Below, piece by piece: positions 4,257 through 58,760 of a stretch of 64,000 nt of DNA. The stretch spans positions 682,001-746,000 of the forward strand of contig NZ_AP018049.1 of the NCBI RefSeq assembly GCF_003609775.1. Direction: 5' to 3'. This DNA is from Prevotella melaninogenica. GTDB taxonomy: Bacteria > Bacteroidota > Bacteroidia > Bacteroidales > Bacteroidaceae. Position 1 is the stretch's first letter. Every line of letters starts with the position of its first letter. A program made the position numbers and the translations under genes. The notes under the pieces are model-generated. The model was not told the origin of the DNA. It did no database searches and saw nothing but the letters and a program-made list of their open reading frames with translations.

Positions 4257-4458
4257 ATATAGTCAATATTGTTTGATAAAAAATGTAATGACATTCTTTA
4301 GTATATGAAATTTCTATCAAATAAACTTAGTCGTTTTAGGCTCTGAAAAGTAATATTCTTCTGACCGAACAAGTCGTGCTGTTTTATGCTTGAATAACTT
4401 CCTTTTGACAACCGATTAATTCCATTTTGATGGTATATTATAAGCTGACGAGTACTCC

Positions 4459-4515
4459 GCACCATTGGTGCGAAGCGTTAACACGACATGTGCTAAGCCT
4501 CAACACATCATGTGC
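4459..4515. repeat. 22-bp palindromic array, family A, locus 1
   Basis: Three 13-mers of the form GCAC-N5-GTGC (first GCACCATTGGTGC, then two with ACAC at the left end) start at 4459, 4481 and 4503, a period of exactly 22 bp. The 9-bp spacers resemble GAAGCGTTA and TAAGCCTCA. Confidence 0.8.
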
Positions 4516-4713
4516 TAAGCACCAATACGTTGGTTGTATATATGCAGATAGAAGCATTATGGTCATCATAAAGGCTCTCAAAAGCACTAACGGAGAACAT
4601 ATACGTAATGTTTATTAGACGTTATGATTTGTATTATATCGTCATCTTATAAAGAAATACCTTTCTGATAGTTGGTAAGTAGCCGCTAAAGTGTTATTTT
4701 TTTCATTGAAAGA

Positions 4714-9686: not shown

Positions 9687-9814
9687 ACTGCAATTTAAAA
9701 AGTTAAGTCTACTGCTTATAGGTGGAATATAATTTTTGTTCTTACTTTCGGGATGGAAAATAGACAGATGTTAGGAGGAGAGTGAGTATATGTTTAATGA
9801 TGCAAAGAAGAATC

Positions 9815-10062
9815 TTTTGTTGTAATATTTTACTCGTCATATTTTAATAGAGCACTAATAGCGTTTCAATTAAGCCTTAATTGTCTTCTTAAAGATGCCC
9901 TTTAGGAAGCGAACTAACGCCCTTTTGCACCCTTGTTAAGCACCTTTTGAAATACAATTTTGTAACTAATTGATTTGCTGTTGGTTATAAACTCGACTTT
10001 TATATCTATCTTTTAGCATTATTCTAAGGCTTTTATTCGAAATTATGTAATAATTTTTCAAT
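9815..10062 (+). repeat. ~245-bp dispersed element, family C, copy 1
   Basis: This segment matches the reverse complement of 58371-58618. Shared blocks include AATTAAGCCTTAATT, AAGATGCCCTTT, AACTAACGCCCTTT, TAAGCACCTTTT and GAAATTATGTAA. GCC-type motifs start at 9874, 9897, 9919 and 9940, spaced 23, 22 and 21 bp. No open frame or transposase is present. Confidence 0.8.
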
Positions 10063-14524: not shown

Positions 14525-14787
14525 AGATTTCTTTATATGTTTATGCAAAGATAGTACCAGCGAGTGCAATGAAAGTTTACTTTTATATTGCCGAGTGCAG
14601 CCTATCTTATGCAAAGATAATAAAAAAGATGATATGTTACTCAGAATTTCCTTATTTTAATAGAAAGGAATAATGTGTTTTAGTGATAGACACTGGTCAC
14701 AGAAGCTGGTTATAAGTGTTTTTTAGTGTTTTATACATGTCTATATTGACTCTTTTTTACCATTTTCTATAATGGTATTGATGCCCC

Positions 14788-14844
14788 GCACATATTGTGC
14801 TGTTGGTAAGCACCAATGGTGTTGAGGGCAAGCACAAGGTGTGA
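14788..14844. repeat. 22-bp palindromic array, family A, locus 2
   Basis: GCACATATTGTGC, GCACCAATGGTGT and GCACAAGGTGTGA start at 14788, 14810 and 14832, exactly 22 bp apart. Spacers are TGTTGGTAA and TGAGGGCAA. Confidence 0.8.
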
Positions 14845-14999
14845 TGAGCGTTTAATGCCTTGAAGTATGTTGTAGAGAGACGTATGGTCGTCCGTTATGT
14901 GCGTATTTTTCTACGTCTAAAAGAGTAGTTGATGATGAAAGCATGCAATCAAATTGTATCTTTAGAATGGTAAAATAAGGTTTTATGCATGATTTGTAT

Positions 15000-16289: not shown

Positions 16290-17264
16290 ATGCGTATCTT
16301 GTTAACCTTTTTGTTCTTGTTGAGTTCTTTTTTATCTGAAGCTCAAACTCGTTTGACGATTGTTGAACTCAATACCGAGAACTTGTTTGATACTCGACAC
16401 GATACTTTGAAGAATGATTATGAGTTCTTACCAGACTCTCCTCGCCATTGGACACGTACGAAGTATTGGCAGAAACTGAATAGAATAGGACAGACAATCA
16501 TTGCTTGTGGCGAAGATAGTAGCGGTTGGACGCTACCTGATATTGTAGGTTTATGCGAGGTAGAGAACGATAGTGTGCTCTTTGACCTTACTCGTCGATC
16601 TTTGTTGCATAAGGCTCGTTATGAATATGTGATGACAGTTTCGAATGATGCGCGTGGTATTGATGTGGCGTTGTTATATTCCCCTTTTTCCTTCCGATTG
16701 ATAAAAGCCGATACGATACGTGTCATACCCATGAAGGAAATGCGCCCAACTCGAGATATTCTATATGTAGAAGGTGAAATAGAAAGCGGTGATACGCTAC
16801 ACGTCTTCCTACTTCATGCACCAAGTCGAATGGGTGGTGAACTTTATTCTCGTCCTTTTAGAAAGCACGTGATGGAACAGTTGTGTAATGTAATAGATTC
16901 TCTTCGTAGGCAGTATGTTGAACCTAAATTGTTGGTGATGGGTGACTTTAATGATTATGCAGATAGTCCTTCACTACAACTTGCGTACGAACATGGATTG
17001 ATAAATGTGTCTGCGGAAGCACATGGGTGTAATGGAGCAAAGGGAACTTATCGCTATCATGGAGAATGGGGAAGTCTGGATCAGATTCTTGTAAGTGAAA
17101 ATCTACGTTCATGGGTGATAGACTGCCGTATTAATGATGCTCGATTTCTGTTAGAAGAAGATACAAAATACGGCGGAGTAAAGCCCCGCCGCAATTATAA
17201 TGGTATGCGTTTTAATAATGGATTTAGCGACCATCTTCCACTTGTTCTGCGTCTCCAGCATTGA
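16290..17264 (+). CDS. Secreted endonuclease/exonuclease/phosphatase family protein
   Basis: The 324-residue protein has a signal peptide (to about residue 18, FLSEAQ) and all EEP-fold motifs: LNTENLFD, LCEVEND with the metal Glu, RGIDVALLYS, MGDFNDYADSP and the final SDHLPL. EEP enzymes hydrolyse phosphodiester bonds in nucleic acids, lipids or nucleotides. Its export suggests a periplasmic or extracellular nuclease or phosphatase; the substrate cannot be told. It is convergent with a lipoprotein gene. Confidence 0.88.
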   Translation: MRILLTFLFLLSSFLSEAQTRLTIVELNTENLFDTRHDTLKNDYEFLPDSPRHWTRTKYWQKLNRIGQTIIACGEDSSGWTLPDIVGLCEVENDSVLFDLTRRSLLHKARYEYVMTVSNDARGIDVALLYSPFSFRLIKADTIRVIPMKEMRPTRDILYVEGEIESGDTLHVFLLHAPSRMGGELYSRPFRKHVMEQLCNVIDSLRRQYVEPKLLVMGDFNDYADSPSLQLAYEHGLINVSAEAHGCNGAKGTYRYHGEWGSLDQILVSENLRSWVIDCRINDARFLLEEDTKYGGVKPRRNYNGMRFNNGFSDHLPLVLRLQH

Positions 17265-17287
17265 TATTTGCACTTCTTCCCGTATTA

Positions 17288-17365
17288 TTTTCATGAAAAA
17301 AAATATTTTTCTTCATGAAAATAAACATTTACTTTCATGAAAATAAATATTTATCTTCGTGAATA
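17288..17365. repeat. 22-bp palindromic array, family B, locus 1
   Basis: Four copies of TTTTCATGAAAA-like palindromes have their TCATGA/TCGTGA cores at 17291, 17313, 17335 and 17357, a period of exactly 22 bp. AT-rich 10-bp spacers such as TAAACATTTA separate them. The array starts 24 bp after the EEP gene stop. Confidence 0.85.
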
Positions 17366-17373
17366 AAAAAAGA

Positions 17374-17408
17374 AAACACTACCCTTCTCGATAGGAAAGG
17401 TAGTGTTT
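17374..17408. terminator. Bidirectional terminator between convergent genes
   Basis: AAACACTACC pairs with GGTAGTGTTT around a short loop, with A/T-rich flanks on both sides. Confidence 0.8.
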
Positions 17409-23468: not shown

Positions 23469-23584
23469 GTGTGTTTTTATTGCTGCCAGGTGAAAGTTTC
23501 TTGTATAAGTCAGTGTTTTTTCTTGTCGTATTAATGACATCTACAGAGTCGACTAATCAATTTTAATCTACGTACTATTGCTTA

Positions 23585-23641
23585 GCACATGTTGTGTTAG
23601 TGCTCCGCACATGTCGTGCTGGCGGTAAGCACAAATGGTGC
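23585..23641. repeat. 22-bp palindromic array, family A, locus 3
   Basis: GCACATGTTGTGT, GCACATGTCGTGC and GCACAAATGGTGC start at 23585, 23607 and 23629, exactly 22 bp apart, with spacers TAGTGCTCC and TGGCGGTAA. Confidence 0.8.
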
Positions 23642-23739
23642 TGATTACTAAGATGTCTTGCAAGAGTCAGTTTTTTTTTGTTCCTTTGTAGCAGAATATA
23701 CGCCTTATAATACATTAATTGCAATTAGCCGATAAAGAA

Positions 23740-50052: not shown

Positions 50053-50263
50053 TTATTTTGTAGAAATTGCTTTGTTATAAGAAAGCAGAGAAACGGAATG
50101 AAAGAGGATAGAATATTACAAATACAGAATTGTCTTTGGTGAACAGTGTTAAGGGTTATCTTTTACATTGAAAGCATGCCTTATCATTATGCTTATTTCT
50201 CTATATGAAAAGAAATCTATCATTAAGCTTTCTTCCCTTTCTTTATTATTGTGTGGAGGCTCA

Positions 50264-50342
50264 GCACCAATTGTGCGGAGGCTTAACACTAATTGTGCGA
50301 AGGCTTAACACTAATTGTGCGAAGGCTTAACACCAATCATTT
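50264..50342. repeat. 22-bp palindromic array, family A, locus 4
   Basis: Units start at 50264, 50286, 50308 and 50330, exactly 22 bp apart: GCACCAATTGTGC, then ACACTAATTGTGC twice, then a decayed fourth. Spacers GGAGGCTTA and GAAGGCTTA are nearly identical, the most uniform array of the family. Confidence 0.85.
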
Positions 50343-50421
50343 GGATGGTTTATAGCCTTGAAATCTTTCTCTTATATTTAGAATAAAAAGAGCAGTTAGC
50401 ATGTTTATTACGATTAAAAAT

Positions 50422-53729: not shown

Positions 53730-53925
53730 AGGGCCCTTCCTCGAGGGGTGCAATGACTTGCAATGGCAGGTCTTCTGACTTGTTGTTTAAAGTGAGGTAA
53801 GCGCCTTCCCAGTTTAATATGAGCCAGTGGCATTAGCTTACCTTTGACAAACAACTTACAGCTGCGGGACAGTAGCGGACTCCCACCGCTTTCCCTTTTT
53901 AATCATGATGGTAATGAACCTATTG
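53730..53925 (-). ncRNA. Cobalamin riboswitch
   Basis: On the minus strand this holds AAAGGGAA, GCGGTGGGAGTCCGC, ACTGTCCCGCAGCTGTAA and the B12 box AAGTCAGAAGACCTGCC (53765-53781), the hallmark segments of the AdoCbl riboswitch in the right order. It lies just upstream of the btuB start at 53699, so it should repress translation or transcription when cobalamin is plentiful. The ends are approximate. Confidence 0.95.
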
Positions 53926-53931
53926 CATTTG

Positions 53932-53939
53932 CAAAGATA
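53932..53939 (-). promoter_or_regulatory. -7 box of the btuB operon
   Basis: On the minus strand this is TATCTTTG, placing the transcript start just before the riboswitch. Confidence 0.65.
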
Positions 53940-58370: not shown

Positions 58371-58618
58371 TATGAAATATATTTACATAATTTCTTATTT
58401 TTAAGCCTTTTGAAATGTATAAAAGTGGGTTTTATGTTGTCTTTGTAACTTCTTTATATTCTGATAGTTATAAGGTTGTATTTTAAAAGGTGCTTACTTG
58501 GCTCCTTAAAGGGCGTTAGTTAGACCTCAAAAGGGCATCTTTTGAAAGCCAATTAAGGCTTAATTCAAACGCTGCTGAGCATGAATTGAAAATGAAGCAA
58601 TGAAAAAATATTACAAAA
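58371..58618 (-). repeat. ~245-bp dispersed element, family C, copy 2
   Basis: The reverse complement matches 9815-10062 over nearly equal length, including AATTAAGCCTTAATT, AAGATGCCCTTTT, CTAACTAACGCCCTTT and TAAGCACCTTTT. GCC-type motifs are again about 22 and 21 bp apart. Confidence 0.8.
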
Positions 58619-58760
58619 TATGTTTTATAGTTGTTACTCTATTCTATTTATACCTTATTTATATATGGTTATCTTTTTTCGTAGAAAACCTATAGAATAT
58701 GATTGTTAAGTTGAGGTTAGTCATAAGAAAATGATTATCTTTTCATCACTTTTTTACTAA

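What the first reader, a model, noticed from the sequence alone, without database searches (positions are those of the whole stretch)
50264..50342. Exactly 22-bp-spaced GCAC...GTGC palindrome arrays at four intergenic loci
Short palindromes of 13 bp (best forms GCACCAATTGTGC, GCACCATTGGTGC) recur in tandem with a period of exactly 22 bp at four separate places: 4459-4515, 14788-14844, 23585-23641 and 50264-50342. Palindromes and period are kept although spacer sequences vary between loci, which is unlike a simple slipped duplication and suggests selection for spacing. Twenty-two bp is about two helical turns, so a dimeric protein could bind all sites on one face. The loci lie between genes in different orientations, so they are not just promoters. 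I do not recognise this family.
Basis: partly seen in the sequence, partly recalled or inferred. Interest (0 to 1): 0.72.

Follow-up and report, generated by a model that had tools for sequence, protein, structure and literature searches.

The report
Spaced 22-bp palindrome arrays in Prevotella
Some oral Prevotella chromosomes carry many short DNA arrays between genes, built of palindromes exactly 22 bases apart; in the half chromosome examined, these and a second array family of different sequence lie about 9,000 bases apart on average and rarely close together, which suggests docking sites that help organise the chromosome.

Summary
The four arrays are at the stated places with an exact 22-bp period. 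The own genome has 272 such unit pairs (control 0); two others of 200 genus genomes also have over 200. Each array is usually 3-4 GTGY-N9-RCAC dyads, 5 bp apart, inside a polar element of roughly 200 bp. Between related species, indels inside arrays are 22 or 44 bp (8 of 8), and GTG/CAC change about four times less often than the adjacent flanks, so spacing and half-sites look selected. Pairing tests argue against RNA hairpins. A second 22-bp lattice family of different sequence (F2), at least partly carried by a MITE, shares the chromosome. In 810 contiguous kb, 56 F1 and 34 F2 arrays avoid one another: 4 gaps under 3 kb against 18 expected. Some other Prevotella have 22-bp lattices of other sequence; one is probably PINSR, a published repeat of unknown function. 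Best reading: protein-docking arrays for chromosome organisation, spread by an old mobile element. Protein binding is inferred; the protein is unknown. New variant of a known kind.

The parts
4446..4528 (-). F1 array, 4 blocks GTGY-N9-RCAC (outer blocks degenerate); element called by HMM at 4352-4618
14775..14844 (+). F1 array, 3 blocks by the rule plus a further degenerate half; element called by HMM at 14710-14928
23572..23654 (+). F1 array, 4 blocks; element called by HMM at 23490-23735
50251..50333 (+). F1 array of the finding, 4 blocks; element called by HMM at 50181-50367
9761..10034 (-). F2 array (second family, AAAAG-type 22-bp lattice)
   Evidence: HMM call of 155 bits; sequence read
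58409..58624 (+). F2 array (second family)
   Evidence: HMM call of 142.5 bits; sequence read

Best explanation
Each array is a docking site for a dimeric, probably cooperative DNA-binding protein: dyads alternate every 11 bp (centre of N9, then centre of N5), so dimers can load side by side on nearly one face over 3-4 repeats, inside an element of about 200 bp whose arms are also phased at 11 bp. The elements were spread by an old mobile element and then kept by the host. F1 and F2, and perhaps the lattices of other sequence in other Prevotella, would do the same job: marking the chromosome every several kb for nucleoid or supercoil organisation, whatever the direction of the neighbouring genes. 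SHOWN here: exact spacing, dispersal of one element, conserved places, constraint on GTG/CAC, indels in 22-bp steps, scarcity of close neighbours. INFERRED: protein binding, cooperativity, chromosome role, equivalence of F1 and F2. UNKNOWN: the protein.
For: Substitutions in 38 ortholog pairs: GTG 20/426, CAC 16/426 against flank 1-50 bp 652/3743 and N5 centre 24/104; G000-G146 alone 15/342 against flank 290/1457, Fisher 2e-14, and against N5 35/210, 2e-6. Indels inside arrays 22 (7) and 44 (1) only. F1 array present at 15 of 16 mappable own places; the other place has an F2 array in both relatives. Spacing in 810 contiguous kb: gaps under 3 kb 4 against 18.0, under 5 kb 16 against 32.8, each 0 of 3000 simulations; G146 under 5 kb 6 of 28 against 14.4, 0 of 2000. 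No link to gene direction or GC skew (rho 0.001, p 0.99). Pairing tests do not support RNA.
Against: No protein identified, no binding or expression data. Strong half-site constraint is shown for F1 only. F1-F2 avoidance weakens when intergenic regions that hold F1 are excluded: 3 of 34 F2 within 3 kb of F1 against 7.3 (fraction 0.031, length weights) or 10.0 (0.002, equal weights). F1 alone is not regular by CV (0.83 against 0.91, fraction 0.23), F2 alone neither (1.20 against 0.92). In G132 spacing does not differ from chance (2 of 12 gaps under 3 kb against 3.4) and 5 of 11 F2 lie within 3 kb of an F1. Nine gaps exceed 13 kb. 5 of 56 arrays lie mostly inside an ORF call. Five of the sampled congeners showed no lag-22 lattice in 20-40 kb.
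Confidence: 0.45

Rival explanations
1. Decaying selfish elements (MITE-like). The arrays were binding sites of a transposition protein, and the spacing comes from target immunity or from loss of close insertions, not from a host function.
For: Copies share arms and slot consensus, so they were dispersed as one polar element. One F2 locus is a MITE of about 590 bp with ~20-bp inverted repeats and an apparent 8-bp duplication, absent in two relatives; several F2 loci align over about 590 bp; ISL3-family transposases are present. Target immunity over kilobases, and 22-bp binding sites in Tn7 and Mu ends, are recalled.
Against: Places are conserved between species and GTG/CAC are constrained there while arms are not; no terminal repeats or clean empty site were found for F1; F2 MITE ends are absent from the window at up to 3 mismatches although it holds two F2 arrays.
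Confidence: 0.25
2. Gyrase or other bend-and-wrap sites, like BIME-2: the arrays are read by shape and phasing rather than by sequence, and hold supercoil domains.
For: F2 has strong 11-bp G+C phasing (power 2.31 at 11 bp against 0.31 in random intergenic DNA); F1 arms have a weaker coherent one (0.40 and 0.35 against 0.29, sd 0.025). E. coli gyrase has a 130-bp motif with phased G+C variation of about 10 bp, and BIME-2 are enriched in gyrase cuts (PMC6379681, passages). It would explain why sequence differs but geometry is kept.
Against: The F1 core has no 11-bp G+C phasing (0.17) and is constrained at particular bases. Common descent alone can make phasing coherent.
Confidence: 0.15
3. Operators of a transcription regulator with many targets.
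For: Clustered dyads with constrained half-sites look like operators.
Against: Convergent and divergent contexts occur in proportion to intergenic length; wide spacing along the chromosome is not expected for a regulon.
Confidence: 0.08
4. Structured RNA or terminator hairpins.
For: Units are palindromic; palindromic candidate RNAs of Bacteroidetes have been predicted (PMC8040213, passages; not compared with these arrays).
Against: Within blocks, complementary pairs at positions 4/14 and 5/13 are rarer than in shuffles (z -3.1, -3.7) and the inner pairs show no covariation. Inverted pairing between blocks is not above shuffles (largest z 1.9, lowest -2.5). Rfam at gathering cut-offs gives only a cobalamin riboswitch in the window.
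Confidence: 0.05

Closest known systems
[quoted passage not shown] abstract, passages and section 3.4 read)
   Same: Intergenic, 177-184 copies per genome, places largely kept between strains, no coding capacity, function unknown. Its 188 bp is about 8.5 times 22, and P. falsenii, a PINSR species, has a 22-bp lattice.
   Different: F1 has another sequence (GCAC half-sites) and another host group. In the passages and section read, the paper does not mention a 22-bp period or palindromes for PINSR.
BrickBuilt MITE of Porphyromonas gingivalis (PMC4596501; abstract, section 5 and part 1 of section 7 read)
   Same: Tandem repeat of similar length (23 nt) between a leader and a tail, always intergenic.
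   Different: 1 to 22.8 copies at 19 loci, IS5-like terminal repeats, confined to P. gingivalis and P. gulae; F1 has 22-bp dyads, mostly 3-4 copies, no terminal repeats found.
REP/BIME elements and gyrase-binding BIME-2 (PMC2817692 abstract start in listing; PMC6379681 passages)
   Same: Hundreds of intergenic palindromes in regularly spaced composite structures; possible role in chromosome topology.
   Different: Rigid 22-bp lattice; lies between divergent genes too; no Y1 transposase found in the own genome.
ISL3-family MITE (for F2)
   Same: Inverted ends like those beside ISL3 transposases of the same genome, apparent 8-bp duplication.
   Different: The 22-bp array inside; F1 shows no such ends.

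Membership tests
PINSR | 188-bp consensus sequence | not testable with these tools
   The consensus is in a figure that is not held; F1 sequence differs from the P. falsenii lattice
PINSR | Intergenic, of the order of 180 copies per genome | tested here: met
   F1: 56 arrays in 810 kb, 5 of them mostly in an ORF call; G084 lattice: 341 forward and 376 reverse unit-pair matches
PINSR | Restricted to P. intermedia, nigrescens, falsenii, disiens | tested here: not met
   F1 is in G000, G132, G146 and absent from the P. falsenii loci held (0 in 141 kb); the PINSR-like lattice also occurs in P. aurantiaca and P. pallens, which were PCR-tested in the paper and are not among its positives
BrickBuilt | 23-nt tandem repeats with leader and tail | tested here: not met
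   Period is 22 bp; arms exist
BrickBuilt | IS5-like terminal inverted repeats | tested here: inconclusive
   No conserved terminal repeat seen in the F1 profile; not searched for by sequence
REP/RAYT | Y1 (RAYT-type) transposase in the genome | tested here: not met
   PF01797: 0 matches in the own genome, control genomes ring in 5 of 14
REP/BIME | Many intergenic palindromes in composite structures | tested here: met
MITE (F2) | Terminal inverted repeats and target duplication with an empty site | tested here: met
   One locus, L037 about 16809-17395; other F2 loci only by similarity
MITE (F1) | Terminal inverted repeats and target duplication with an empty site | tested here: inconclusive
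   Arms found but no ends; the one locus lacking F1 in relatives has F2 and an unalignable intergenic region
Gyrase site | G+C variation phased at about one helical turn | tested here: inconclusive
   F2 yes, F1 arms weakly, F1 core no
Gyrase site | Gyrase binding or cutting | not testable with these tools
   Needs ChIP-seq or Topo-Seq

The most novel reading that the evidence does not exclude
A Prevotella chromosome-organising system in which geometry is conserved but sequence is not: lattices of dyads 11 and 22 bp apart, every several kb, whose half-site sequence turns over between lineages (GCAC, TGCAC, AAAAG, GCAAAAG) together with a fast-evolving binding protein, so that different families replace one another at the same chromosomal slots.
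Probability: 0.25. Interest if true: 0.85.

Novelty: new variant of a known kind. Interest (0 to 1): 0.62.

Why it matters
Highly repeated intergenic elements are usually treated as selfish leftovers. Here orthologous copies show base-level constraint and a fixed 22-bp phase, and two families of different sequence share one spacing rule. If the arrays are docking sites, they offer a ready map of chromosome organisation in a phylum whose sequence-specific nucleoid organisers are poorly known (recalled), may give PINSR a function, and make the question 'does spacing or sequence matter?' directly testable.

Tried and rejected
RNA or terminator hairpins: pairing at or below chance. Strand-of-replication polarity (KOPS- or Chi-like): a first impression of imbalance was not borne out in 105 oriented arrays (arm orientation against GC skew rho 0.001, p 0.99; array polarity against skew rho 0.10, p 0.33). 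Gene-direction dependence: none seen. REP/RAYT: no Y1 transposase. F2 as a fixed part of the ISL3 insertion sequence: two own transposase loci have F2 downstream, but the one G132 copy read (L143; eight identical transposase matches were listed) has no F2 in its flanks; further IS copies fetched were not analysed. One search gave a stronger regularity (CV 0.45) but its stretches had been picked because they held arrays; it was replaced by the contiguous 810 kb. Arrays of yet another sequence in the own long gaps: lag 22 is not above lag 21 (8 and 8 at the main threshold). Viral contigs: 46 stretches match the bare pattern, 1 of them matches the element HMM at E<=1e-3 and none the F2 HMM, so most look like chance. 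Plasmid search with window 50181-50367: no match; phage records were not searched. A list of positions that seemed to stop at 821 kb was an effect of the capped listing. Literature searches cover open-access papers only; I found no description of the F1 family in their listings.

Full report
CHECK. In the window, units with at most one mismatch pair, at lags of 13-44 bp, only at 22 (8) and 44 (4); 100 Markov-1 sequences gave no pair at 22. Single units are only twice the chance rate (28 against 15.1). The own genome has 272 pair matches with up to 2 mismatches, control 0. Of 200 genus genomes, own included, 25 have a match at up to 1 mismatch: own 207, G132 210, G146 203, G011 15, the others 1-7; controls are 0 or 1 except for one genome (G089, 15 control matches). 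Among 119 genomes of the order, own included, the only other match is a single one in G266.

ANATOMY. F1 is best written as blocks GTGY-N9-RCAC at a 22-bp period with N5 between them. In 1.264 Mb of own stretches (most chosen round known matches) 108 arrays have 4 (55), 3 (44), 5 (5), 2 (3) or 6 (1) blocks. The arrays lie in a polar element: two arm classes are on opposite sides in 54 of 79 elements with both arms scored, both arms of one class in 25; arm orientation learned from flank columns agrees with the purine polarity of the array in 88 of 105. In 53 four-block copies each slot has its own consensus, e.g. CAATG in the third N5, and column bias extends 60-85 bp on either side (104 copies). 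An HMM of 53 copies finds 107 of 108 arrays. That the copies descend from one dispersed element is inferred from this shared sequence.

SELECTION. Over 38 ortholog pairs among G000, G146 and G132 (not independent) GTG changed 20/426, CAC 16/426, Y 11/142, R 13/142, N9 positions 5-27 of 142 (the first as little as GTG), N5 positions 11-24 of 104, flank 1-50 bp 652/3743, 51-100 bp 485/3729, 101-200 bp 734/7257, the outer flanks reaching into genes. On G000-G146 alone GTG+CAC is 15/342 against N5 35/210 (p 2e-6), N9 61/513 (p 1e-4) and flank 1-50 bp 290/1457 (p 2e-14). Indels inside arrays: seven of 22 bp, one of 44 bp, no other size; flanks: 80 indels, four of them 22 or 44 bp. Of 42 own arrays 16 have flanks that map to a relative's held stretches (15 to G146, 11 to G132); 15 have an F1 array there, and the remaining place (L039:987) has F2 calls in both relatives.

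NOT RNA, NOT GENE-DIRECTED. Pairs 4/14 and 5/13 within blocks are complementary less often than in shuffles (z -3.1, -3.7); the inner pairs show no covariation. Inverted pairing between blocks is not above shuffles, the largest z being 1.9. Contexts are tandem 20, divergent 10, convergent 9, stretch end 3 of 42 own arrays, close to the shares of intergenic length (simple ORF calls). Orientation is unrelated to GC skew.

A SECOND FAMILY. Weak hits of the F1 HMM (19 without a GCAC array) exposed F2: AAAAGGGCATCTTTTGCAAGTC-like units, seed distances 22 (29), 44 (16), 66 (14) and three single others. HMM calls: own 106 F1 and 46 F2 in 1.264 Mb; G146 23 and 17 in 240 kb; G132 17 and 12 in 160 kb. 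One F2 locus (L037 about 16809-17395) is a MITE of about 590 bp with ~20-bp inverted repeats and an apparent 8-bp duplication, absent in G146 and G132; several other F2 loci align with it over similar lengths. Six ISL3-family matches occur in the genome (one protein checked in Pfam). That ISL3 elements make 8-bp duplications is recalled.

SPACING. In contiguous C1:1-810000 there are 56 F1 and 34 F2 arrays, mean gap 8.8 kb. Gaps below 3 kb: 4 against 18.0 when arrays are put in random intergenic regions (0 of 3000 as low); below 5 kb 16 against 32.8 (0 of 3000); CV 0.68 against 0.88 (fraction 0.003). F1 alone: below 5 kb 5 against 13.2 (0.0017), but its CV is not significant (0.83 against 0.91); F2 alone: below 5 kb 0 against 5.0 (0.003), its CV higher than simulated (1.20 against 0.92). 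F2 within 3 kb of F1: 3 of 34, with 42% expected. When intergenic regions that hold F1 are excluded, the expectation falls to 7.3 (0.031) or, with equal weights, 10.0 (0.002); rotation of one set gives 13.6. Nine gaps exceed 13 kb. G146: 3 of 28 gaps below 3 kb against 7.7 (0.007), 6 below 5 kb against 14.4 (0 of 2000). G132: 2 of 12 against 3.4 (0.22), no effect, and 5 of 11 F2 within 3 kb of an F1. Both relatives' stretches were chosen round F1.

OTHER PREVOTELLA. A sequence-free scan for three dyads at equal lag gives, for lag 22 against the mean of other lags: G000 53 and 6.2, G146 12 and 0.8, G132 13 and 0.6, G084 8 and 0.3, G011 9 and 0.5, G160 4 and 0.3, G010 2 and 0.15, G061, G016 and G163 1 each, and G024, G124, G185, G195 and G137 none (the G011 and G160 stretches were picked by the GCAC pattern, and G084 includes two transposase loci). 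G084 has 341 forward and 376 reverse matches of its own AAAA..TTTTGC lattice, control 0. A 37-base pattern common to F2 and that lattice matches 53 stretches: P. histicola 29, P. falsenii 18, P. aurantiaca 5, P. pallens 1. The P. histicola loci have an F2-like lattice and 1 F1-rule hit in 229 kb; the P. falsenii loci have none in 141 kb. PINSR (PMC4755523, section 3.4) fits the falsenii lattice in host, place and length (188 bp is about 8.5 times 22), but its consensus could not be read, and P. aurantiaca and P. pallens, which carry the lattice here, were PCR-tested there and are not among the positives.

MECHANISM. Dyads every 11 bp with constrained half-sites and strict phase point to dimers bound side by side. 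Insensitivity to gene direction, conserved places and the scarcity of close neighbours point to a chromosome-level role rather than control of single genes. F2 has strong 11-bp G+C phasing and the F1 arms a weaker coherent one; the F1 core has none, so a pure bend-and-wrap (gyrase) reading does not cover F1. Spread by a mobile element and later use by the host are compatible. Which protein binds, if any, is unknown.

VERDICT. Real, apparently selected, shared in part of the genus, functionally unexplained. The best reading is a family of docking arrays for chromosome organisation; selfish decay plus insertion rules is the main rival.

Noticed in passing
window 53748-53939 (-): Cobalamin riboswitch (RF00174, 105 bits).
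   Followed up: no
L037 about 16809-17395 (own C1 about 56.8-57.4 kb): MITE of about 590 bp with GGTTCTTCCGTTAAATG-type ends carrying an F2 array, with an empty site in two relatives; this end pattern occurs 35 times in the genome at up to 2 mismatches.
   Followed up: partly
L075-L083 (G011): GCAC-type lattices several of which end in TTAAC...GTTAA-like palindromic halves, a compact variant with another spacer.
   Followed up: partly
L159 about 1333-1440 (G163): AAACATATATGTTT and CAAAGTTCAACTTTG palindromes at about 22-bp steps beside an ISL3-like transposase.
   Followed up: no
L040 about 17195 (own) against L060:7327 (G146): By coordinate offset, an F2 array in the own genome seems to face an F1 array in G146; not aligned.
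   Followed up: no
G146 contigs: Contig sizes 1796408 and 1371874 match Prevotella melaninogenica ATCC 25845 as recalled; not checked by any search.
   Followed up: no
G089: 15 matches to the reversed control pattern, an unexplained repeat of its own.
   Followed up: no
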